Virus record (IMG/VR): IMGVR_UViG_3300042691_026427
Location: 1 to 64,000 of that record
From: a virus
DNA: 64,000 bases
Strand: one strand, 5' to 3'
In this document: positions 370 through 35,790 of the stretch, one piece after another
Layout of the letters: every line of letters starts with the position of its first letter
How positions within the stretch are numbered: the first letter of the stretch is position 1
Made by a program: the position numbers and the translations under genes
The notes under the pieces: generated by a model
Databases searched by the model: none
The model's input: only the letters and a program-made list of their open reading frames with translations
Told to the model about the DNA's origin: nothing

Positions 370-463
370 AAACACACTACATCCAGCGAACCCATCTGCT
401 GGCTTAGTTATTAATCGCTACAGGATAACCGGAATCCTTCGCTGAGGCGTCAGTAATGTGTTT
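370..463 (-). ncRNA. structured element with an 11-bp closing stem inside the tRNA array
   Basis: The ends AAACACATTAC and GTAGTGTGTTT (minus strand) pair over 11 bp with one G-T. Inside are AGGAT-TCCGGTT-ATCCT (5 bp, 7-nt loop, anticodon-arm-like) and CCAGC-AGATGGGTTC-GCTGG (containing a T-loop-like GGTTC). It is not a normal tRNA: the pseudo-anticodon loop lacks U33 and no D arm is visible. Function unknown. Confidence 0.5.
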
Positions 464-469
464 GTTAAT

Positions 470-548
470 TGGCTCCGTGTGTGAGGATCGAACTCACCTA
501 ATCACTGATTAACAGTCAGGTCCTTGCACCATGCTTGGATTTCACGGA
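470..548 (-). tRNA. tRNA-Asn (GUU)
   Basis: Acceptor TCCGTGA/ACACGGA, anticodon loop CTGTTAA (GTT), T arm GTGAG-TTCGATC-CTCAC, discriminator G and encoded CCA. A second tRNA-Asn(GUU) lies at 2462-2536. Confidence 0.9.
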
Positions 549-1537: not shown

Positions 1538-1650
1538 AGGATACCTTTTTCGATGGCGTGTAAGCCATTGCTCTACCATTGAGCGATCTACGCAAAAGCG
1601 TGGAGTTGGAATCGAACCAACGTGTCGTTAGACATTGCTGTATGTATCCT
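1538..1650 (-). ncRNA. Y-RNA-like element (a) with a circularly permuted tRNA-like domain
   Basis: On the minus strand: closing stem AGGATAC/GTATCCT, then ATA-CAGCAA. The enclosed tRNA-like parts come in permuted order: T arm GTTGG-TTCGATT-CCAAC (1605-1621); acceptor halves TCCACGC and GCGTAGA joined by a TTTT tetraloop (1587-1604); D arm GCTC-AATGGTA-GAGC (1570-1584); and ATGGC-TTACAC-GCCAT (1553-1568, a 6-nt loop). The acceptor has no free 3' end, so as transcribed it cannot be aminoacylated. This permuted, capped layout is that reported for YrlA-type bacterial Y RNAs. The same closing stem and CAGCAA occur in five other elements in this window. Confidence 0.72.
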
Positions 1651-1658
1651 AAAACTTG

Positions 1659-1734
1659 TGGTGCCATAGACTGGACTCGAACCAGTAACACACGAATTTT
1701 CAGTCCGCTGCTCTACCATTGGAGCTACTATGAC
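1659..1734 (-). tRNA. tRNA-Phe (GAA)
   Basis: Acceptor GTCATAG/CTATGGC, anticodon stem GCGGA/TTCGT with loop CTGAAAA (GAA), T arm ACTGG..CCAGT and encoded ACCA. Confidence 0.92.
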
Positions 1735-1746
1735 ATAAACTTATTA

Positions 1747-1819
1747 GGGGTGACTATCGGGATTTGAACCCGAACTACCAGAGTCACAGTCTAGGTTGCT
1801 ACCATTACAACATAGCCAC
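1747..1819 (-). tRNA. tRNA-His (GUG) inside a 9-bp outer stem
   Basis: Acceptor GTGGCTA/TAGTCAC, anticodon stem CTAGA/TCTGG with loop CTGTGAC (GTG), T arm CGGG-TTCAAAT-CCCG and discriminator C, typical of His. CCA is not encoded. The ends extend, past one mismatch, into a perfect 9-bp stem CTTATTAGG/CCTAATAAG (1821-1829 with 1740-1748), unlike every other tRNA here. The -1 base is T, not the G expected for His. Confidence 0.88.
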
Positions 1820-1837
1820 ACCTAATAAGTCTAAAAT

Positions 1838-1911
1838 TGGCAGGGGTAGTAGGGATCGAACCTACACTCTCAGAGTCAAAGTCTGATATGCTACCATTAC
1901 ATAATACCCCA
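1838..1911 (-). tRNA. tRNA-Gln (UUG)
   Basis: TGGGGTA/TACCCCT acceptor (1-72 mismatch, as weak first pairs are usual in tRNA-Gln), anticodon stem TCAGA/TCTGA with loop CTTTGAC (TTG), discriminator G and encoded CCA. Confidence 0.91.
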
Positions 1912-1921
1912 ACAAAATAAC

Positions 1922-1976
1922 AGGATGCTTATTTTTCAATTAAAAGTTGAATTTTAAAAATTGCTGAACGCATCCT
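1922..1976 (-). ncRNA. Y-RNA-like element (b), short form
   Basis: Minus-strand closing stem AGGATGC/GCATCCT followed by GTT-CAGCAA and the flank CCTGTT. It encloses one hairpin, TTCAA-CTTTTAA-TTGAA. The stem differs from element (a) by a compensated A-T to G-C change. Confidence 0.6.
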
Positions 1977-1981
1977 AAAAC

Positions 1982-2057
1982 TGGTACATCGTGTAGGGAT
2001 TGAACCTACGACCTACGCCGTGTAAAGACGCCGCTACTACCGCTGAGCTAACGATGC
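1982..2057 (-). tRNA. tRNA-Val (UAC)
   Basis: Acceptor GCATCGT/ACGATGT, anticodon stem GCGTC/GGCGT with loop TTTACAC (TAC), T arm GTAGG-TTCAATC-CCTAC, encoded ACCA. Confidence 0.9.
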
Positions 2058-2063
2058 ATAAAT

Positions 2064-2139
2064 TGGTCTCCGTACTAGGATTCGAACCTAGACCTTACCG
2101 CCCCAAACGGCAAGTGCAACCTGATAACACTTTACAGAG
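2064..2139 (-). tRNA. tRNA-Pro (UGG)
   Basis: Acceptor CTCTGTA/TACGGAG, anticodon stem TGCCG/CGGTA with loop TTTGGGG (TGG), T arm CTAGG-TTCGAAT-CCTAG, encoded ACCA. Confidence 0.92.
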
Positions 2140-2146
2140 ATGAAAT

Positions 2147-2220
2147 TGGCGTACCTCCAAGGACTCGAACCTTGACTGACGGTTTTGGAGACCGCGATGC
2201 TGCCATTACACTAGAGATAC
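2147..2220 (-). tRNA. tRNA-Trp (CCA)
   Basis: Acceptor GTATCTC/GAGGTAC, anticodon stem GCGGT/ACCGT with loop CTCCAAA (CCA), discriminator G and encoded CCA. Confidence 0.92.
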
Positions 2221-2230
2221 ATTATTAAAC

Positions 2231-2283
2231 AGGCTTCGCTTTTTTTCATTTACAGTGAAATTTAAATTTGCTGAAAGAAGCCT
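2231..2283 (-). ncRNA. Y-RNA-like element (c), short form
   Basis: Minus-strand closing stem AGGCTTC/GAAGCCT followed by TTT-CAGCAA, with a single internal hairpin TTTCA-CTGTAAA-TGAAA and the 3' flank CCTGTT. The stem sequence is quite different from (a), (b) and (d) but still fully paired. Confidence 0.6.
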
Positions 2284-2289
2284 AAAACT

Positions 2290-2375
2290 TGGAGGATAGA
2301 ATCAGAATCGAACTGATACCCATTTCTGAGTAGATCGGTTTAGCAAACCAACTTGTGCCCAGCACACTACTATCC
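2290..2375 (-). tRNA. tRNA-Ser (GCU), class II
   Basis: Acceptor GGATAGT/TCTATCC, anticodon stem TTGGT/ACCGA with loop TTGCTAA (GCT), long variable region, T arm ATCAG-TTCGATT-CTGAT and encoded CCA with a T discriminator. Confidence 0.88.
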
Positions 2376-2382
2376 ATAAAAT

Positions 2383-2456
2383 TGGTGCCCCATGACAGAA
2401 TCGAACTGCCGTAACCTGATTACAAAACAGGTGTAATACCATTATACTAATAGGGC
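2383..2456 (-). tRNA. tRNA-Thr (UGU)
   Basis: Acceptor GCCCTAT/ATGGGGC, anticodon region CCTGT-TTTGTAA-TCAGG (TGT; inner stem pair mismatched), T arm GGCAG-TTCGATT-CTGTC, encoded ACCA. Confidence 0.86.
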
Positions 2457-2461
2457 AAAAT

Positions 2462-2536
2462 TGGCTCCTCAGACTGGGATCGAACCAATGACCGATCGGT
2501 TAACAGCCGATTGCTCTACCGCTGAGCTACTGAGGA
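2462..2536 (-). tRNA. tRNA-Asn (GUU), second copy
   Basis: Acceptor TCCTCAG/CTGAGGA, anticodon stem ATCGG/CCGAT with loop CTGTTAA (GTT), encoded GCCA. The body differs clearly from the Asn tRNA at 470-548. Confidence 0.92.
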
Positions 2537-2544
2537 ATAAAACT

Positions 2545-2622
2545 TGGAGTAGCGGGTGAGATTTGAACTCACGGTTTTACGGATTTGCAATCCATTGCAT
2601 TGGGCCTCTCTGCCACCGCTAC
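2545..2622 (-). tRNA. tRNA-Cys (GCA)
   Basis: Acceptor GTAGCGG/CCGCTAC, anticodon stem ATGGA/TCCGT with loop TTGCAAA (GCA), discriminator T as expected for Cys, encoded CCA. Confidence 0.91.
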
Positions 2623-2631
2623 ATAAAAACT

Positions 2632-2705
2632 TGGTAGCCAGTCCACGAATTGAACGTGAAATTTCCGCTTATCAGGCGAATGTTATTCCATTTAACTAAC
2701 CGGCC
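2632..2705 (-). tRNA. tRNA-Ile (GAU), second copy
   Basis: Acceptor GGCCGGT/ACTGGCT with G-T pairs, anticodon stem TTCGC/GCGGA with loop CTGATAA (GAT), T arm CACG-TTCAATT-CGTG, encoded ACCA. It is divergent from the Ile tRNA at 122-196. Confidence 0.87.
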
Positions 2706-2714
2706 AGTTATTTC

Positions 2715-3116
2715 TTACCACTCTGCGTATTCACTTATCATACGAGAGTTTGTATCTTGTCTTTTAGTAGATTCTACACAACGAAGTTTAACTTCTTTCA
2801 CATCACATATTGCTGTAATAGGAATAAGATATACTTTATCTAATTCGTTTACATAAACTGCTAAACAATCAATGTTACTTTCGTTGTAAGAAACTCTATT
2901 AGTGAATGTGTTTTGCGATAGTTTGATTGTAACTACACCGTTACTTTCCAACGATCTAAACTTAACTTGAACTCTTAAAAGTGTCCCATCATGTTTATCT
3001 AACACATAATCATAAGGACAACCTTGAGGCATCTTGCCAGTCCAGTACCCTCGTTTAGCAGAAGCAAGCACAAATGCTGCTTCTCCTATTTCACCTTTTT
3101 CATTTGATATACTCAT
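2715..3116 (-). CDS. PD-(D/E)XK endonuclease-like protein in the tRNA array
   Basis: A 133-residue protein starting at MSISNEKGE. This ATG is chosen because AGGAG lies 7 nt upstream; the longer frame would run into a structured RNA. D36 in a PYDYVLD context and Q50-V-K52 in LLRVQVKF match the D...QxK catalytic layout of the I-Ssp6803I-like homing endonuclease family, followed by a YLIP-type strand near residue 105. I-Ssp6803I itself is encoded in a tRNA group I intron, so a lone copy among tRNA genes fits a free-standing homing endonuclease. No intron is visible around it. Inference is from motif only. Confidence 0.68.
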   Translation of the reverse strand: MSISNEKGEIGEAAFVLASAKRGYWTGKMPQGCPYDYVLDKHDGTLLRVQVKFRSLESNGVVTIKLSQNTFTNRVSYNESNIDCLAVYVNELDKVYLIPITAICDVKEVKLRCVESTKRQDTNSRMISEYAEW

Positions 3117-3173
3117 AGTGTTTCTCCTATGAGTAGTTATAACACTCGCCAGGAAAGCGGGCGATAATAAAAC

Positions 3174-3237
3174 AGGATACTTTGTGTCGCTAGACAACCA
3201 AAAAGTTTAGCTAATTTGAATTTGCAGAACGTATCCT
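3174..3237 (-). ncRNA. Y-RNA-like element (d), short form
   Basis: Minus-strand closing stem AGGATAC/GTATCCT, GTT-CTGCAA (one base different from the other copies) and 3' flank CCTGTT. It lies immediately upstream of the endonuclease-like gene and probably in its leader. Confidence 0.58.
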
Positions 3238-3324: not shown

Positions 3325-3411
3325 TGGTGGAGTGTGATGGAATCGAACCACTTGGCGCCACCCTACTTGTTAGGCCTACCGGGTTACAGCCGGCAATAGG
3401 GAACACACTCC
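3325..3411 (-). tRNA. tRNA-Tyr (GUA), class II, second copy
   Basis: Acceptor GGAGTGT/ACACTCC, anticodon stem GCCGG/CCGGT with loop CTGTAAC (GTA), long variable arm and encoded ACCA. Only the outer acceptor resembles the Tyr tRNA at 779-865. Confidence 0.88.
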
Positions 3412-3440
3412 AATTTGTTAACACTCTCTTGTGAAAGTGC

Positions 3441-4011: not shown

Positions 4012-4070
4012 TTTGTTTTCTTTTAAAAACCTTTGTTTACATAGATAGCACCATTGCTGCCTATGTGTTA

Positions 4071-4099
4071 ATTATACATTTATTTAGTCTCGTTGTCAA
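4071..4099 (-). promoter_or_regulatory. tandem sigma70-type promoter A
   Basis: TTGACA (4094-4099), 17 nt, TATAAT (4071-4076) on the minus strand: exact consensus at both hexamers. Confidence 0.92.
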
Positions 4100-4154
4100 C
4101 CACTATTTGTCTTTTTGAACAAAAAGTTTTTAACAACTTTCCTAACTTGTCTCT

Positions 4155-4183
4155 ATTGTACAGTTATTTAGTCTCGGTGTCAA
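4155..4183 (-). promoter_or_regulatory. tandem sigma70-type promoter B
   Basis: TTGACA (4178-4183), 17 nt, TACAAT (4155-4160). The spacer shares CGAGACTAAATAA with promoter A, and both are followed by AACTTTTTGTTC-type or AGTTA-type sequence, showing an ancestral duplication. Confidence 0.9.
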
Positions 4184-4247
4184 CCTTTTTTTATTCTGTT
4201 GAACAAAAAGTTTTTTGTTAACTGCGAAACTTCCAAACCATGTGTCT

Positions 4248-4276
4248 ATTGTATGATCATTCATCTTCTTTGTCAA
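4248..4276 (-). promoter_or_regulatory. tandem sigma70-type promoter C
   Basis: TTGACA (4271-4276), 17 nt, TACAAT (4248-4253). Together with A and B this 200-bp block forms a triple promoter for the minus-strand small gene and, by read-through, the tRNA array. The stretch 4012-4347 holds no gene otherwise. Confidence 0.9.
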
Positions 4277-4347
4277 CCACTATTTTACGCTGTCACAAAA
4301 AGTAGTTAGCACAGTAGAGTAAATTAAATACTACTATTACTTATATT

Positions 4348-5145
4348 ATGAAAAATCAAAACTTTGTTACTATCGGATCGTTCGGCGATACATTATACAG
4401 TCTATGTGTTGCAAAAATTTTAGGTGGGGGCAACATGTATGTCAAATTGGGAGGCATGGACGAACTGGTCAGAACACTGTTCGGAAGAGAACCAGAGGGA
4501 TTTCACAAGGGCCGTTACAATCAACAAGACTACGATCTTATTGCTCCGCTGCTCAAAGCTCAAGACTATCTATCAGATGTTGCTATTTGGACCGGGCAAG
4601 AAAATCATTTCGAATCGTTAAATGACCATTGGAAATTTCACTTACCCCGAGGTTGGCAAGGTAACCAAACAGAATGTTACGCATTAACACAAGGTATGGA
4701 CATATATGAGCCTGTATTGAGTAAAAAACTATTGCTAGAGCCTTGGCTTACCCCAGTAAAACCTGTTAAAATAAAAGATAAGCCCATTGTAATCAACAGA
4801 ACACCTCGCTATCTTTATGGCTGCGATGGTGCTCAGTGGACTACATGGGTAGGCCAAGGTCTAGAAGACTATGCTGTTTTTGTAGGAACAGAACAAGAAC
4901 ATAGTGATTTTCAGAAGCAATTTAACGTCAAAGTAGAGTATAAGCCAGTTAACGATCTGTTAGAGATGGCTCAAATTATACAAGGATGTGAACAGTTTAT
5001 GGGTAATCAAAGTGTTGCGTTGTCTATTGCTATAGGGTTAGGGAAAACATTTTGGTGCGAAACAAGAAAAGATTTTCACCTAACTAAAACTCCGCATGGT
5101 TGGGGGGACGTTTGGTTCCCAAGAGTTAACGGCCACTATTTTTAA
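4348..5145 (+). CDS. GT-B glycosyltransferase-like protein (family 9-like)
   Basis: 265 residues. The N-terminus VTIGSFGDTLYSLCVAKIL resembles the first strand and helix of heptosyltransferase-type (GT9) enzymes, which start with a G-x-GD signature. The C-terminal half (IVINRTPR, VFVGTEQEH, FMGNQSVALSIAIGL) matches the nucleotide-sugar-binding half of that fold. It opens the plus-strand sugar operon, 8 nt before the next gene. A TTAAATAC late-promoter-like box lies at 4324-4331. Two other genes of this kind are at 35818-36588 and 37147-37902. Acceptor and donor are unknown. Confidence 0.6.
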   Translation: MKNQNFVTIGSFGDTLYSLCVAKILGGGNMYVKLGGMDELVRTLFGREPEGFHKGRYNQQDYDLIAPLLKAQDYLSDVAIWTGQENHFESLNDHWKFHLPRGWQGNQTECYALTQGMDIYEPVLSKKLLLEPWLTPVKPVKIKDKPIVINRTPRYLYGCDGAQWTTWVGQGLEDYAVFVGTEQEHSDFQKQFNVKVEYKPVNDLLEMAQIIQGCEQFMGNQSVALSIAIGLGKTFWCETRKDFHLTKTPHGWGDVWFPRVNGHYF

Positions 5146-23811: not shown

Positions 23812-25386
23812 TTATTGTGGATTTGCACCCATTGGCTCTCTGGATCCGCCCAATGTTTTGTTCATATTTCTAGTGCCGGGCGTGGAAAACTGTGTGCCCT
23901 GCAATGTTGAGGTATTAGGACCAGATTTGATTCCAGCTAAGTTTTTTATATTTTGCAACTCATCAGGTTTAGCTGCCGTAGGAGTTTGATTAGTAGTTGC
24001 GCCCGGAGCAGGTTGCTTAGTTGCCATGGTTGTTAATTCGGCCAACAACGGCTCCATTGTAATGGCATTCCAAATCTTTTTATTATCACCAGTTGCATGA
24101 TAACCAAGTTTTACCAAAGATTTTCCAGAATTTGCATCTTTAATGTTAATCTCAGGCCTAGGTTCACCTGTTTTACTTTTTCCAACTCGGTAATCAACAG
24201 TTAAATTAATATTATCTGATATTAATTTTTGTAATAGTCCTCTAAAACTATGGACTGCACTAACACCTTTTTTACTTAATTGCACCAATCGAACAGTTTC
24301 GTCGCCTTTAGTAGCATGATTAACAATCATATCAGCAATTTTAGTAACAATTCCCGCTTCAGATTTAGCATTGTCTCCTGCTAACAGTTTAGATAATTGT
24401 TGAGCAGCTTGATTGTAGGCTTGATTCCACCATTCAATTTTTGTCGTAGGAGCTTTAGAGGGTGGTGATAATTCTATTCCTAATGGACTAAAAAAGTTAA
24501 CAGAGCTTTGATAGATACCTTTAGCACTGGTAACATCGCTAGTTACAGATCCTGCGCCCTGTTGTCCAAACTGGCTGCTACCGGCTTTCAAACTGATCTT
24601 GATGTTCTTAAGAGAACGTAGTTGTCCATCTTCGCCTTTTACATATGCTTCGATATCAGTTTTTCTACCTTTCTGATCACTCATTCCGTCACTTTGGACT
24701 CTGATTTCATCAACCTTACCATTCTTATAAAAATAATCGGCATATCGATCAATCTGACCACTGTTGGCATAATGCACGGCACTTTGTGCTATGCCACCGA
24801 CGTGGTCCCAAAATTCAGGTTTTTGCATGAATAACTTGGTAGGTTCTCTAACTGCGAGTGTAAATGTTATCAAATCAGCAATGGCACTATTTTTATCTGT
24901 AGGTTTATACGATGATGTTCCGGAAAAGACTGCATCATTCAACACATTTTTTAAATCTTCGATATCGATATTTTCTACTTTGTTAGAACCACGTTTAATT
25001 AATTTTGCTACTACCGCGGCACTAAGCACTGGCTCAGACAAGTCGCCTACATTGCCTTCTGTGCTGCCTTTTTGTCCAGGGGCATGTATCAAGCCACCTT
25101 GTATTGCACTGTCAGATCCAGCGATATTAAAATAAGAATTGTTACTTCTCTTAAATGATCTTAAATTTTCGCCTTTGCCAAATTGTACTGTAGCAGTTCC
25201 TCGGGGAGCTTTTTCGACCCATTCGATGTCTTCTATAGGATCGTAATCTGGAACAACTTGTTTAATAGCTTTAAATAGAGCGCGGCCTTTATCTGATGAT
25301 ACACCTACTCTAACTTTATGTCCGTAGGAGTATTTGTCAAGACGTGTAAAAATGCTAGCTTCAGGTAAAAATTCTTTTAATCGCAT
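23812..25386 (-). CDS. large putative internal head protein with capsid-targeting signal
   Basis: 524 residues starting MRLKEFLPEAS, an excellent fit to a T4 capsid-targeting sequence with L-P-E|A as the predicted prohead-protease cut. No enzymatic domain is recognised, but residues about 80-330 look globular and may be a nuclease or restriction-like fold (DIEAYVKGEDGQLRSLKNIK then ISLKAGSSQFGQ, resembling a D...ExK-type arrangement). The C-terminus is low-complexity. If cleaved and packaged, it would be injected with the DNA. Confidence 0.62.
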   Translation of the reverse strand: MRLKEFLPEASIFTRLDKYSYGHKVRVGVSSDKGRALFKAIKQVVPDYDPIEDIEWVEKAPRGTATVQFGKGENLRSFKRSNNSYFNIAGSDSAIQGGLIHAPGQKGSTEGNVGDLSEPVLSAAVVAKLIKRGSNKVENIDIEDLKNVLNDAVFSGTSSYKPTDKNSAIADLITFTLAVREPTKLFMQKPEFWDHVGGIAQSAVHYANSGQIDRYADYFYKNGKVDEIRVQSDGMSDQKGRKTDIEAYVKGEDGQLRSLKNIKISLKAGSSQFGQQGAGSVTSDVTSAKGIYQSSVNFFSPLGIELSPPSKAPTTKIEWWNQAYNQAAQQLSKLLAGDNAKSEAGIVTKIADMIVNHATKGDETVRLVQLSKKGVSAVHSFRGLLQKLISDNINLTVDYRVGKSKTGEPRPEINIKDANSGKSLVKLGYHATGDNKKIWNAITMEPLLAELTTMATKQPAPGATTNQTPTAAKPDELQNIKNLAGIKSGPNTSTLQGTQFSTPGTRNMNKTLGGSREPMGANPQ

Positions 25387-25392
25387 AATAAT

Positions 25393-26067
25393 TTATTTAC
25401 CTAATTCAGGAAACAATACTTCCTGTACAAATTGCTCAATAATAGACTGCTCATAGCCCATAGCAACCATGCTGCGTACTACATGCGGATTCTGTTTTTG
25501 ATAGTGACAATATCTATTTTGTAGGTCACTGTAGTCTGCGCCAGGTGTTGAATAGCCGTTGCAGTTGTCCAAATAGTAGTCTAGTGCATCAAATCCCAAT
25601 TCAATGAATTGGTCTACTTCGTGCAAATCTTGCACATTACCCGCCGCAACCATACTTTTGCTAAAAATAGCCTGTGCCCACTCGGGTAGTTGCCTAGGCT
25701 TATTCCATGTGTACCCCGAACTCTTGTCTTCCCACCATTTAAACATGGGGTGATCGGAGGTACCTGCCAAACTGAAATCGTGAAATGCACCTGTGATTTT
25801 GTTTTTTCCACACACAGCATCAAATCCCCATATGGGCGCACTAGATGTTACATGTGGAAATACTGTAGCGTGAACAATAAACAGTCCGTATTTCTCACGC
25901 TGGTCAACAACTTCCACATGACCTCGACGATATACGGTGCTAGTATAGATATGATTTTCCCAATTGTATTTCTTCAATATAGGATCATCATATAGCTGAC
26001 CGGCAGCTAACATTTTATTTTTCAAAGAATCTGCACAAGATTCCATTCTGGACCACACTTCGCTCAT
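25393..26067 (-). CDS. ferredoxin-dependent bilin reductase (PcyX/PebS-like)
   Basis: 224 residues matching the HY2/PcyA/PebS family: WGFDAVCGKNKITGAFHDFS then a HPMFKWWED region, PEWAQAIFS near 125 and a C-terminal QNPHVVRSM stretch with the YCHYQKQN helix. Family members reduce biliverdin to open-chain bilins using ferredoxin. It is encoded 3' of heme oxygenase in a coupled trio (4-nt overlaps), so heme to biliverdin to a phycobilin is the inferred route. Phage-encoded bilin reductases (PebS, PcyX) are established knowledge. Exact product is unknown. Confidence 0.82.
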   Translation of the reverse strand: MSEVWSRMESCADSLKNKMLAAGQLYDDPILKKYNWENHIYTSTVYRRGHVEVVDQREKYGLFIVHATVFPHVTSSAPIWGFDAVCGKNKITGAFHDFSLAGTSDHPMFKWWEDKSSGYTWNKPRQLPEWAQAIFSKSMVAAGNVQDLHEVDQFIELGFDALDYYLDNCNGYSTPGADYSDLQNRYCHYQKQNPHVVRSMVAMGYEQSIIEQFVQEVLFPELGK

Positions 26068-33836: not shown

Positions 33837-33863
33837 ATAAAAAATGGGGCACTAAGGCCCCAT
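33837..33863 (-). terminator. rho-independent terminator after the TROVE gene
   Basis: ATGGGGC-CTTA-GTGCCCCAT followed by a T run on the minus strand. It ends the transcript that starts at the promoter 35762-35790. Confidence 0.87.
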
Positions 33864-33870
33864 AAACACA

Positions 33871-35268
33871 TTAAGCAATTACGCTGTAACGTGGACTGTT
33901 TAGTGTCGCCAACATTACGTTGGTTGGATCTAAATCTTCTGCCTTCAAGATTGAAGTCATGATGCTTGGGCTGAACCCAGACACCAATGCAACTCCCTTC
34001 TTGTCGAACTTGACTGGACTTTGTCCCGCCTTAGCGTTCAAGTTCCAGAATACAATGTTTGGCACAGTGTATCCTGCTTCGGCAAACTTACGTTCGATCA
34101 TTTGCATAGCAGAGTCATCGTGACGAGCACATTGATCAAACTGCATATCACTCATGATCAGAACATACTTTGGCATGTCGTTGGCACTAACACCACCTGC
34201 CTTGGCAACACGCAACACTTCTTCAAATGCGGCGTTTAGGTTAGTGTTCATGTCCCAATCTGCTCGTTGCAACTGTGCCAACTTGCTGGTCAAGTTACCC
34301 TTCAAGATTTCGATCTTGCTCTTTGCAGAGAAAGTCAAAAACATGTCCTTGAATGGACCAGTGTTCTTGTCAGCGAGGTACAGGCCCAAGCTAACGCAAA
34401 CGTCCATACAAGTCAAGTTGGCGTTTCCACCAACTGGGCAGCTCATAGAGCCCGATACGTCACACATTGGTAACACCAGTTCATCACCGATGTAGTTTGG
34501 CAATGCATCCCATTGGGCTTGCATTACAGTGGCATCGCCGCCAAACTTGTTGCTCTTGATGACATCGTAAGGGTAAACAGCCGAAGCGTTTACCTTTGCT
34601 TCACCAGTAACCAACTTGCCCTTGTAAGCTTCATACCCTGCGGCATCGTGCTTCTTAAAGGCCTTTTGGTAACGTGCAGCCGCAAGCGACGGCACATGGC
34701 TATAGTTGATGTTGGTCCAGTCGTTGGCACACATGTTCTGTTCCACAGTCTTGCTCAAAGAGACAAGGCTCTTACGGTAAAACTTTGGGCTCATTCCGAA
34801 GAATGTGCGGATTTCTGCGGCCAATGCACCCTGACGTGGCATCCACTTTGCAGCCAGGCCGTTACGTTCACGAAGAGCGTCACCGATTAGGGTAAATGCC
34901 TGTGCCTTTGCTTCCTTAGAAGTAAAGATCAACAGGTCATCCCAACGACCAAATTCTGCAAGGTGAGGGATCAAACGAGCCAACGCCTTAGGGTTAGTCT
35001 TTTCAAGATTCAAAAGAATCTTACGCACGACTTCACGTTCGCCTGCGCCACCACGGACGTCACGTGCCCACATCAAAAGACGTAGGGCCAGTGTTTCGTC
35101 CTGTGCAAGGGCACGGGCAAATTGGGTGCTCAAGTCCTTACCACGGCTTGCGCCAATAGTGAAGAACAGATCAACAAGATCGCTCTTGCTGGAATCGAAA
35201 GTCTTCATACCGTTATCGGTACGGACAGTCTTAGGTACGGTCTTAACCGCTTGAACAAATGCGTTCAT
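33871..35268 (-). CDS. TROVE/Ro60-like (DUF2828-like) vWA RNA-binding protein
   Basis: 465 residues. The N-terminal HEAT-like part carries the TROVE hallmarks: FFTIGASRGKDL, LRLLMWARDVRGGAGERE and LAEFGRWDDLLIF. The C-terminal vWA domain has the MIDAS motif LPMCDVSGSMS (D-x-S-x-S) and later KYVLIMSDMQFDQC. Ro60/Rsr proteins form a ring that binds Y RNAs and misfolded RNA ends. Two tandem structured RNAs with a consensus promoter lie in its leader (35329-35737). DUF2828 proteins share the fold but have no proven Y RNA; that is the alternative. Confidence 0.84.
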   Translation of the reverse strand: MNAFVQAVKTVPKTVRTDNGMKTFDSSKSDLVDLFFTIGASRGKDLSTQFARALAQDETLALRLLMWARDVRGGAGEREVVRKILLNLEKTNPKALARLIPHLAEFGRWDDLLIFTSKEAKAQAFTLIGDALRERNGLAAKWMPRQGALAAEIRTFFGMSPKFYRKSLVSLSKTVEQNMCANDWTNINYSHVPSLAAARYQKAFKKHDAAGYEAYKGKLVTGEAKVNASAVYPYDVIKSNKFGGDATVMQAQWDALPNYIGDELVLPMCDVSGSMSCPVGGNANLTCMDVCVSLGLYLADKNTGPFKDMFLTFSAKSKIEILKGNLTSKLAQLQRADWDMNTNLNAAFEEVLRVAKAGGVSANDMPKYVLIMSDMQFDQCARHDDSAMQMIERKFAEAGYTVPNIVFWNLNAKAGQSPVKFDKKGVALVSGFSPSIMTSILKAEDLDPTNVMLATLNSPRYSVIA

Positions 35269-35328
35269 TTTATTTTCCTTCAGGTTACTTTTAAATTAAA
35301 AAATTATGCTGTATATAACCTATACAAC
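35269..35328 (-). other. leader between the ncRNAs and the TROVE gene
   Basis: About 60 A/T-rich bases with AAGG about 7 nt before the ATG (AACCTGAAGGAAAATAAA ATG) and the CCTGTT flank of element (e). No gene. Confidence 0.5.
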
Positions 35329-35564
35329 AGGATGGGTGGAACCGTAATATTTTTTCTGGCCAACTTTCCCCAGTATATCGGTTCAGTTCCTTGGCCCTAT
35401 CCTAACTTGTGTCTGCGTTAGAAAACATATATGTCTTTCCATAAGTCGTCAGTTCCATTAGTGTTATAGTTTATACATTTCTGTATTCCTACTACAGCCT
35501 TTCCACGGGCCACTGTCTACTGCATTTACGGCTTTAGTATTGTTTAAATTGCTGAATCCATCCT
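35329..35564 (-). ncRNA. Y-RNA-like element (e), long form
   Basis: Closing stem AGGATGG/CCATCCT with ATT-CAGCAA after the 5' strand and CCTGTT after the 3' strand, as in the five other elements. The roughly 220 enclosed bases fold into several hairpins, including GGCCAA/TTGGCC and GGAAC/GTTCC. It is the second RNA of a tandem pair in the TROVE leader. Confidence 0.68.
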
Positions 35565-35574
35565 AGGATTTAAC

Positions 35575-35737
35575 AGGTTAGTTGTTGACTGCTTTTATTT
35601 TACTCAGGCCATCACTCTGAGCTTGTTGGTCTATTTCAATAGCTACCTTCACAGCACTTGGGCGAACCTTTGTGCTCCAGCGGACTACCATAGGGTCCAA
35701 CGATCCATAGTAATATGAATGTTGCTGTACCTAACCT
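35575..35737 (-). ncRNA. Y-RNA-like element (f), tRNA-mimic form
   Basis: Closing stem AGGTTAG/CTAACCT with GTA-CAGCAA and 3' flank CCTGTT. Inside, in 5' to 3' order: D-arm-like GGAC-CCTATGGTA-GTCC (35682-35698), AGCAC...GTGCT containing GGTTCG, a capped stem CTAT-TGAA-ATAG, and CTCAG-AGTGATGGC-CTGAG. The sequence GGTTCG, capped stem, D-like arm parallels the permuted tRNA domain of element (a). It begins about 18 nt after the predicted transcription start. Confidence 0.7.
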
Positions 35738-35761
35738 TAAAAACTTACTGTCTAAGCATTT

Positions 35762-35790
35762 ATTATATAGTAACTTAATTATCTTGTCAA
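35762..35790 (-). promoter_or_regulatory. sigma70-type promoter of the ncRNA pair and TROVE gene
   Basis: TTGACA (35785-35790), 17 nt, TATAAT (35762-35767): perfect consensus, no ORF for 490 nt downstream. Confidence 0.92.

What the first reader, a model, noticed from the sequence alone, without database searches (positions are those of the whole stretch)
33871..35790. Phage-encoded Ro60/TROVE protein with a tandem pair of Y-RNA-like RNAs under one consensus promoter
The sequence shows a TROVE-type vWA protein (RGGAGERE, FGRWDDL, DxSGS MIDAS) preceded by 490 nt without an ORF and a perfect TTGACA-17-TATAAT promoter. That leader contains two RNA elements, (f) 35575-35737 and (e) 35329-35564, each closed by a 7-bp stem (AGGTTAG/CTAACCT and AGGATGG/CCATCCT) with CAGCAA three bases after the 5' strand and CCTGTT at the 3' end. 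Ro60/Rsr proteins bind Y RNAs, which are stem-closed RNAs often encoded next to rsr; some Y RNAs mimic tRNA (established for bacteria). I infer a phage ribonucleoprotein that could act in RNA quality control, host RNA decay or tRNA turnover during infection.
Basis: partly seen in the sequence, partly recalled or inferred. Interest (0 to 1): 0.95.

Follow-up and report, generated by a model that had tools for sequence, protein, structure and literature searches.

The report
Phage Ro60 with tRNA-arm-mimicking Y RNAs
This phage encodes a Ro60-like RNA-binding protein together with a family of small RNAs that share one binding handle and display copies of tRNA pieces, most often a lone anticodon arm, which may be decoys against bacterial enzymes that destroy tRNAs.

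Summary
The ORF at 33871-35268(-) is a divergent TROVE/Ro60 protein: PHROG 850 at E 2e-149, and its predicted fold matches a solved TROVE domain over its whole length. Elements f and e have the stems and motifs described. They belong to a real, large RNA family. The handle is a 7-bp stem P1 (AGG-N4/N4-CCT here), three bases, CAGCAA and, on the 3' side, GTT. In an unbiased viral scan, 136 of 141 hits pair at all four free positions with 24 different stems; the same pattern in 257 Gb of cellular genomes gives 1 of 60. Of 19 viral records found by the RNA alone, 18 carry the protein. The window holds four more copies (a-d) between tRNA genes and, newly seen, a seventh (g) abutting the protein's ribosome-binding site; 45 of 60 relatives have such an element. 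Element d is a permuted tRNA like Rfam YrlA. Most minimal elements (53-65 nt) are anticodon stem-loop mimics with U33 and A37, most often UGU and UUU anticodons. I infer a phage Ro60 RNP that displays tRNA parts, most likely as decoys for host anticodon nucleases, and that represses its own translation. Binding and function are untested. New variant of a known kind.

The parts
33871..35268 (-). TROVE/Ro60-like protein (Rsr), 465 aa: N-terminal helical TROVE part and C-terminal vWA domain
   Evidence: PHROG 850 'RNA-binding protein' E 2.3e-149; Pfam DUF7788 and DUF2828; AlphaFold2 pLDDT 80.9, pTM 0.78; Foldseek top hit 9kop TROVE domain, E 2.2e-8, TM 0.54
35762..35790 (-). Promoter TTGACA-17-TATAAT (12 of 12)
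35575..35737 (-). Element f: Y-RNA-like RNA, P1 AGGTTAG/CTAACCT, 163 nt
   Evidence: covariation in A3: 94.7% of cells paired, 10 of 23 pairs with double changes, score 0.284 vs 0.112 shuffled
35329..35564 (-). Element e: Y-RNA-like RNA, P1 AGGATGG/CCATCCT, 236 nt; interior fold unsolved
   Evidence: 6 different P1 stems among 32 relatives
35282..35321 (-). Element g (new): 40-nt P1-CAGCA hairpin whose 3' strand abuts the Shine-Dalgarno sequence GAAGGA of the TROVE ORF; proposed autoregulatory site
   Evidence: 45 of 60 distinct TROVE leaders have such an element ending at most 25 nt before the ATG; reversed control 0
1538..1650 (-). Element d: P1 AGGATAC/GTATCCT around a circularly permuted tRNA (T arm, acceptor stem capped by UUUU, D arm, anticodon arm with a 6-nt loop)
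   Evidence: Rfam YrlA RF02553 model positions 1-114, 29.6 bits, E 0.0017 in 4.4 kb, below the gathering score of 69; fold z -3.5
1922..1976 (-). Element c: minimal type, P1 AGGATGC/GCATCCT, anticodon-arm mimic UUCAA-CUUUUAA-UUGAA (Lys UUU)
   Evidence: R2 E 5.7e-14 (it was one of the 24 training sequences)
2231..2283 (-). Element b: minimal type, P1 AGGCUUC/GAAGCCU, anticodon-arm mimic UUUCA-CUGUAAA-UGAAA (Tyr GUA)
   Evidence: R2 E 1.5e-11 (training sequence)
3174..3237 (-). Element a: minimal type, P1 AGGATAC/GTATCCT, pseudoknot-like interior GCUA...GUUGUC-UAGC-GACA
   Evidence: R2 E 2.1e-5, not in the training set; 18 relatives of this subtype
33844..33863 (-). Terminator-like hairpin just downstream of the TROVE ORF

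Best explanation
A phage Ro60 ribonucleoprotein system. SHOWN by comparative sequence analysis: one TROVE protein and a set of RNAs built on one handle (7-bp closing stem, 2-4 nt, CAGCAA, an A-rich 3' side), which occurs in phages that have the protein. Each handle carries an exchangeable module: an anticodon stem-loop (5 bp, 7-nt loop, U33, A37); a T arm; a nearly whole tRNA opened in the acceptor stem, before the anticodon arm, in place of the anticodon arm or in the variable loop; a pseudoknot-like fold; or the larger e and f folds upstream of the gene. A copy of the handle sits on the ribosome-binding site of the protein's mRNA. INFERRED: (1) the TROVE protein binds the handle (likely, about 0.85); (2) excess protein binds element g and blocks its own translation (about 0.6); (3) the displayed tRNA parts engage host enzymes that recognise tRNA, above all anticodon nucleases used in phage defence, as decoys held in a stable RNP, so that the cell's and the phage's tRNAs survive (about 0.35).
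For: P1 is real and RNA-level: 109 of 118 elements in TROVE loci pair 4/4 at the free positions, 19 stems, shuffled mean 17 and maximum 30; 136 of 141 in a viral scan that did not use the protein or the stem, 24 stems, shuffled mean 20; 1 of 60 in 257 Gb of cellular genomes. P1 plus anticodon arm: 99.7% of cells paired, covariation 0.588 vs 0.125 shuffled and at most 0.093 slid. Anticodon-arm mimicry: 126 of 193 minimal elements have a 5-bp/7-nt hairpin (shuffled 19); a 9-nt loop is only mildly raised (41 vs 16) and other sizes are near chance; U33 in 113 of 117, A37 in 98. 78 of 175 loops equal real anticodon loops of tRNA genes in the same loci (shuffled 0.1, maximum 2). tRNA modules in 81-148-nt elements: T arm in 77 of 86 (shuffled 1.2), in several permuted orders. 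Link to the protein: 18 of 19 RNA-found records have it; R2 E below 1e-3 in 13 of 18 cultured TROVE phages, one of which (BUCT-ZZ01) gave a training sequence; no R2 hit in TROVE-less T4, phiKZ, SPO1, syn9. Autoregulation: 45 of 60 leaders, control 0. Decoy idea: the commonest mimicked anticodons are UGU (25) and UUU (23), the two main targets of the PARIS nuclease AriB, whose site has UAAU, also present in these mimics (PMC12409363); Cas13a cuts U-rich anticodons (PMC11042736); YrlA was proposed as a competitor of an anticodon nuclease (PMC7790460); TROVE lies beside RNA ligase genes in several jumbo phages.
Against: No binding, expression or infection data here. Counts of anticodons are not corrected for shared ancestry. 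About a third of minimal elements do not fit a 5-bp/7-nt anticodon arm, and a, e and f do not look like anticodon arms, so decoying cannot be the whole function. PARIS AriB also reads the D loop, which a lone arm lacks. No PF09414 RNA ligase or RtcB was found in the 149-kb record, which may be a fragment.
Confidence: 0.45

Rival explanations
1. RNA decay adaptor: as proposed from Deinococcus radiodurans RYPER, the Y RNA tethers the phage Rsr to PNPase or another nuclease, and the tRNA modules recruit or gate substrates. The RNP degrades structured host or phage RNA.
For: Rsr-Y RNA-PNPase is the best-studied bacterial case (PMC7790460 and PMC8058203); the protein has the TROVE fold; authors of the Listeria phage CKA15 study propose it for their Rsr.
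Against: It does not explain why isolated anticodon arms with real anticodon loops are conserved, nor the many tRNA permutations.
Confidence: 0.2
2. Bait or regulator of tRNA modification or processing enzymes: the arms and permuted tRNAs bind host tRNA-modifying enzymes, or gate Rsr, to tune tRNA maturation from the phage tRNA array.
For: Position 36 of the mimics is U or A in 103 of 117 and position 37 is A in 98, the class that carries t6A or i6A-type modifications (general knowledge); 109 of 193 minimal elements have a tRNA end within 60 nt upstream, nearly all at 5-9 nt.
Against: Many elements lie outside tRNA arrays; no modification data.
Confidence: 0.2
3. Decaying tRNA pseudogenes or array spacers that happen to keep arms.
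For: Many elements sit between tRNA genes and contain tRNA-like pieces.
Against: P1 and CAGCAA have no tRNA counterpart, yet P1 covaries almost perfectly; elements occur outside arrays and at the rsr ribosome-binding site; the same pattern in cellular genomes is at chance.
Confidence: 0.03
4. Mainly cis-regulation: the elements are Rsr-binding leader or operator sites that regulate rsr and the tRNA operon, with no effector role in trans.
For: 58 of 60 rsr leaders carry at least one element, 45 of 60 at the ribosome-binding site.
Against: Elements with elaborate tRNA modules lie far from rsr; whole-tRNA modules are more than a repressor site needs.
Confidence: 0.12

Closest known systems
YrlA bacterial Y RNA (Rfam RF02553) with Rsr
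   Same: Closing stem that (in YrlA) carries the Rsr site, and a circularly permuted tRNA-like domain with a capped acceptor stem; element d aligns over the full model
   Different: Score 29.6 against a gathering score of 69; other tRNA permutations occur; most family members are anticodon-arm-only RNAs of 53-65 nt that no Rfam model covers
Mycobacteriophage Y RNAs (reported in Chen et al. 2014; cited in PMC12282133; paper itself not held)
   Same: In phage LeBron a YrlA-like RNA lies just downstream of the TROVE gene
   Different: On each side of it lies a minimal element with its own stem and CAGCAA; I found no description of these in the papers that could be read
Ro60/Rsr (TROVE-vWA proteins)
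   Same: Helical TROVE part plus vWA with MIDAS; Foldseek hit to solved TROVE domain 9kop
   Different: Sequence falls in Pfam DUF2828/DUF7788 and PHROG 850, not in the Pfam TROVE model; Ro60 and Deinococcus Rsr structures are not among the listed fold hits
Phage tRNAs that resist anticodon nucleases (PMC10264068, PMC12409363)
   Same: Phage RNAs with anticodon arms, encoded in the same arrays
   Different: The minimal RNAs have no acceptor, D or T arm and cannot decode
Bacteriophage T4 rnaC and rnaD
   Same: Small stable RNAs of the tRNA cluster
   Different: No P1-CAGCAA handle and no TROVE gene

Membership tests
TROVE/Ro60 protein family | Helical TROVE fold joined to a vWA domain | tested here: met
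   AlphaFold2 model and Foldseek 9kop, E 2.2e-8, TM 0.54 over 499 columns
TROVE/Ro60 protein family | vWA MIDAS residues DxSxS, T, D | tested here: met
   D270, S272, S274, T342, D374 invariant in 40 sequences
TROVE/Ro60 protein family | Match to a Pfam TROVE sequence model | tested here: not met
   Only DUF7788 and DUF2828 match up to E 1; profile search of PDB reaches TROVE chains only at E 0.68
TROVE/Ro60 protein family | Binds Y RNA | not testable with these tools
   Genetic linkage only
Y RNA, YrlA type (RF02553) | Score above the Rfam gathering threshold | tested here: not met
   29.6 against 69 bits for d; 0 of 25 TROVE-phage records above cut-off
Y RNA, YrlA type (RF02553) | Closing stem around a tRNA-like domain with capped acceptor stem | tested here: met
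   Element d and several relatives; not the minimal, e or f types
Y RNA in general | Small RNA encoded with an rsr gene and closed by a conserved stem | tested here: met
Y RNA in general | Expressed and found in complex with Ro60/Rsr | not testable with these tools
   No transcriptome or pull-down data; the CKA15 transcript region whose coordinates are given does not contain the motif
tRNA gene | Complete cloverleaf that could be aminoacylated | tested here: not met
   No element a-g is called by ARAGORN; the minimal types have one arm

The most novel reading that the evidence does not exclude
Phages carry a modular RNP counter-defence: a Ro60-like protein loaded with a changeable set of anticodon-arm and permuted-tRNA mimics that soak up host anticodon nucleases such as PARIS AriB, PrrC or Cas13a, with the set of anticodons following the local threat.
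Probability: 0.3. Interest if true: 0.95.

Novelty: new variant of a known kind. Interest (0 to 1): 0.82.

Why it matters
Bacterial Ro60 and Y RNAs have had known partners but little known purpose, and phage tRNA arrays are long debated. A Y-RNA family reduced in most members to a handle plus a real anticodon loop says what the display module may be for, and gives a direct link between Ro60 RNPs and tRNA-targeting defence. It is present in cultured phages of ordinary laboratory hosts, so it can be tested soon. It also adds short RNAs between phage tRNA genes, a place where annotation sees only spacers, and suggests that phage rsr genes are autoregulated.

Tried and rejected
Rfam search of the e-f region up to E 5 gave only chance matches. 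Single-sequence folding of e and f was not significant. A first covariance model (R1; counted) had the 3' strand of P1 shifted by one column; it was discarded and rebuilt as R2. PDB search by single sequence found nothing and by profile found TROVE chains only at E 0.68. YrlA hits near E 1 were not trusted, because 13 of 14 control cellular genomes also ring at that level. The most abundant non-coding region of Listeria phage CKA15 (26,236-26,727) was tested as expression evidence and rejected: it has no P1-CAGCAA element, although three elements lie upstream of its rsr gene at 25290-25552. A general coupling to RNA ligase was not supported: PF09414 was found in 6 of 20 records. Considered and rejected: chance repeats and tRNA pseudogenes. 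The interior fold of e was aligned but not solved.

Full report
What was checked. The window is part of a 149,248-bp virus record. By sequence it is PHROG 850 'RNA-binding protein' (E 2.3e-149) and Pfam DUF7788/DUF2828; 682 of 50,697 phage records hold a relative. An AlphaFold2 model from 40 relatives (pLDDT 80.9, pTM 0.78) has one match in the PDB below E 0.001: 9kop, a TROVE domain (E 2.2e-8, TM 0.54, whole length). So it is TROVE by fold, but divergent. A perfect sigma-70-type promoter lies at 35790-35762(-), and a terminator-like hairpin lies just after the gene.

The RNA elements. f and e are as described. Four more copies (a-d) lie on the same strand between tRNA genes at 1538-3237. All share AGG-N4, three bases, CAGCAA (CTGCAA in a), then N4-CCT-GTT with N4 complementary.

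Is the family real? In 80 IMG/VR loci fetched by the protein, plus the window, 118 distinct elements were found without using the stem; 109 pair at all four free positions, with 19 stem sequences, against 17 expected by shuffling and 30 at most. The same pattern in 257 Gb of bacterial and archaeal genomes gave 60 hits, of which one pairs 4/4, as chance predicts. For 24 minimal elements the proposed structure pairs in 99.7% of cells, covariation 0.588 against 0.125 shuffled and at most 0.093 when slid. For the f type, 94.7% and 0.284 against 0.112.

Is it tied to the protein? Of 19 viral records picked by the RNA pattern alone, 18 have PHROG 850; the exception is a 114-kb record that may be a fragment. 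I picked these 19 mostly for size, not at random. Of 18 cultured TROVE phages, 13 have R2 hits at E below 1e-3; one of them, BUCT-ZZ01, contributed a training sequence, and the hits for window elements b and c are also training sequences. Four large TROVE-less phages (T4, phiKZ, SPO1, syn9) have none at E up to 1. A relaxed scan of cultured phages finds 57 elements, some on overlapping loci, against 3 in reversed sequence, including Aeromonas phage 4_4572 (eight), APT65 (four in tandem just upstream of the gene), garuso, KVP40, LeBron and Listeria A511. P1 need not begin AGG: AGA...TCT, AGACC...GGTCT and GAGCGC...GCGCTC occur.

The element at the ribosome-binding site. Of 60 distinct TROVE leaders, 58 carry at least one element within 620 nt and 45 carry one that ends at most 25 nt before the ATG; reversed controls give 0 and 0. 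Some of these leaders come from close relatives. In the window this is AGGTTAT-ATA-CAGCAT...GTAACCT-GAAGGA at 35321-35282(-). This arrangement is what translational autoregulation would look like; that is inference.

What the modules are. Of 193 distinct minimal elements (up to 80 nt), 126 contain a 5-bp stem with a 7-nt loop (shuffled 19, maximum 32); loops of 9 are mildly raised (41 vs 16) and other sizes are near chance. Among 117 of these, position 33 is U in 113 and position 37 is A in 98 (where several hairpins fitted, the one with U33/A37 was taken, a small bias; shuffled hairpins have U33 in 0.27 and A37 in 0.47). In 78 of 175 the loop is identical to an anticodon loop of a tRNA gene in the same loci (shuffled mean 0.1, maximum 2). 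These are anticodon arms. In the window c shows CUUUUAA (Lys) and b CUGUAAA (Tyr). Commonest anticodons: UGU 25, UUU 23, then UCU, UGA, GGA 7 each, UAU 6, GUA 5; not corrected for ancestry. Of 193, 109 have a tRNA end within 60 nt upstream, nearly all at 5-9 nt. The 86 elements of 81-148 nt hold T arms (77, shuffled 1.2), anticodon arms (34, shuffled 5.6) and D arms (53, shuffled 18) in several orders: tRNAs opened in the acceptor stem, before the anticodon arm, at the anticodon arm or in the variable loop. d is of the last kind and aligns end to end with YrlA.

How it most likely works. Shown: the handle, its linkage to the protein, the modules, and the site at the ribosome-binding site. Inferred: Rsr binds the handle; the modules meet enzymes that recognise tRNA. 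I favour decoys for anticodon nucleases, for four reasons. Anticodon arms with real loops are the commonest module. UUU and UGU lead, and these are the two main targets of the PARIS nuclease AriB, whose UAAU signature the mimics carry; that study also found hints that phage tRNAs can act as inhibitors (PMC12409363). Cas13a prefers U-rich anticodons (PMC11042736). And YrlA was already proposed as a competitor of an anticodon nuclease (PMC7790460). Against: AriB also reads the D loop, many modules are not anticodon arms, and there are no experimental data. Rivals are RNA decay with PNPase, bait for modification enzymes, and pure cis-regulation.

Known and new. Phage TROVE proteins and phage YrlA are known, and a Listeria phage study suspected Y RNAs near its Rsr. 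I found no report, in the papers I could search, of the minimal anticodon-arm RNAs, of the range of permutations, or of the rsr ribosome-binding-site element. The key paper (Chen et al. 2014) is not held, and most preprints are not held, so prior description cannot be excluded. Verdict: new variant of a known kind.

Noticed in passing
L090:4875-4995 and 5005-5117; L089:5580-5824: tRNA genes of Cronobacter phage S13 and Synechococcus phage BUCT-ZZ01 carry insertions of about 35-45 nt with a shared pattern (AAAACGC-hairpin-TATTCAGCA or AATTCTGCA), apparently in or next to the anticodon arm, like small introns.
   Followed up: no
window 4064-4308: Three degenerate tandem copies of a 68-nt unit on the minus strand containing TTGACA-like and TATAAT-like boxes, upstream of the tRNA and Y-RNA array: apparently tandem promoters.
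   Followed up: no
window 381-490, 1040-1125, 3328-3412: tRNA-like sequences not called by ARAGORN, one with an unusually long acceptor stem, one with a weak tRNA-Sec match; they may be further tRNA mimics.
   Followed up: no
window 2719-3116 (-): An unannotated protein of about 130 aa encoded inside the tRNA array; possibly a homing-type nuclease (guess from the sequence, not searched).
   Followed up: no
L293:3237-3728 (Listeria phage cka15 26,236-26,727): The region reported as by far the most transcribed of this phage lacks the P1-CAGCAA motif and is a different, large non-coding RNA next to the tRNA array.
   Followed up: partly
Listeria phage cka15, CKA15_055: The Rsr-like protein was detected in purified virions (20 peptides, 57% coverage, PMC12282133); the authors caution that it may be a contaminant. 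If real, the RNP may be delivered with the genome.
   Followed up: no
L212, L217, L218, L219: In jumbo phages XbC2, Munch, BF and GAP32 the TROVE gene lies next to an RNA ligase gene; in Listeria A511 a 'tRNA splicing ligase' is close by.
   Followed up: partly
window 3174-3237 and relatives such as L168, L183: The a-type minimal element has an invariant pseudoknot-like core GCUA...UUGUC-UAGC-GACAA of unknown meaning; 18 relatives.
   Followed up: no
L294:909-1172: T4 rnaC and rnaD, small stable RNAs in the T4 tRNA cluster, do not carry the handle.
   Followed up: partly
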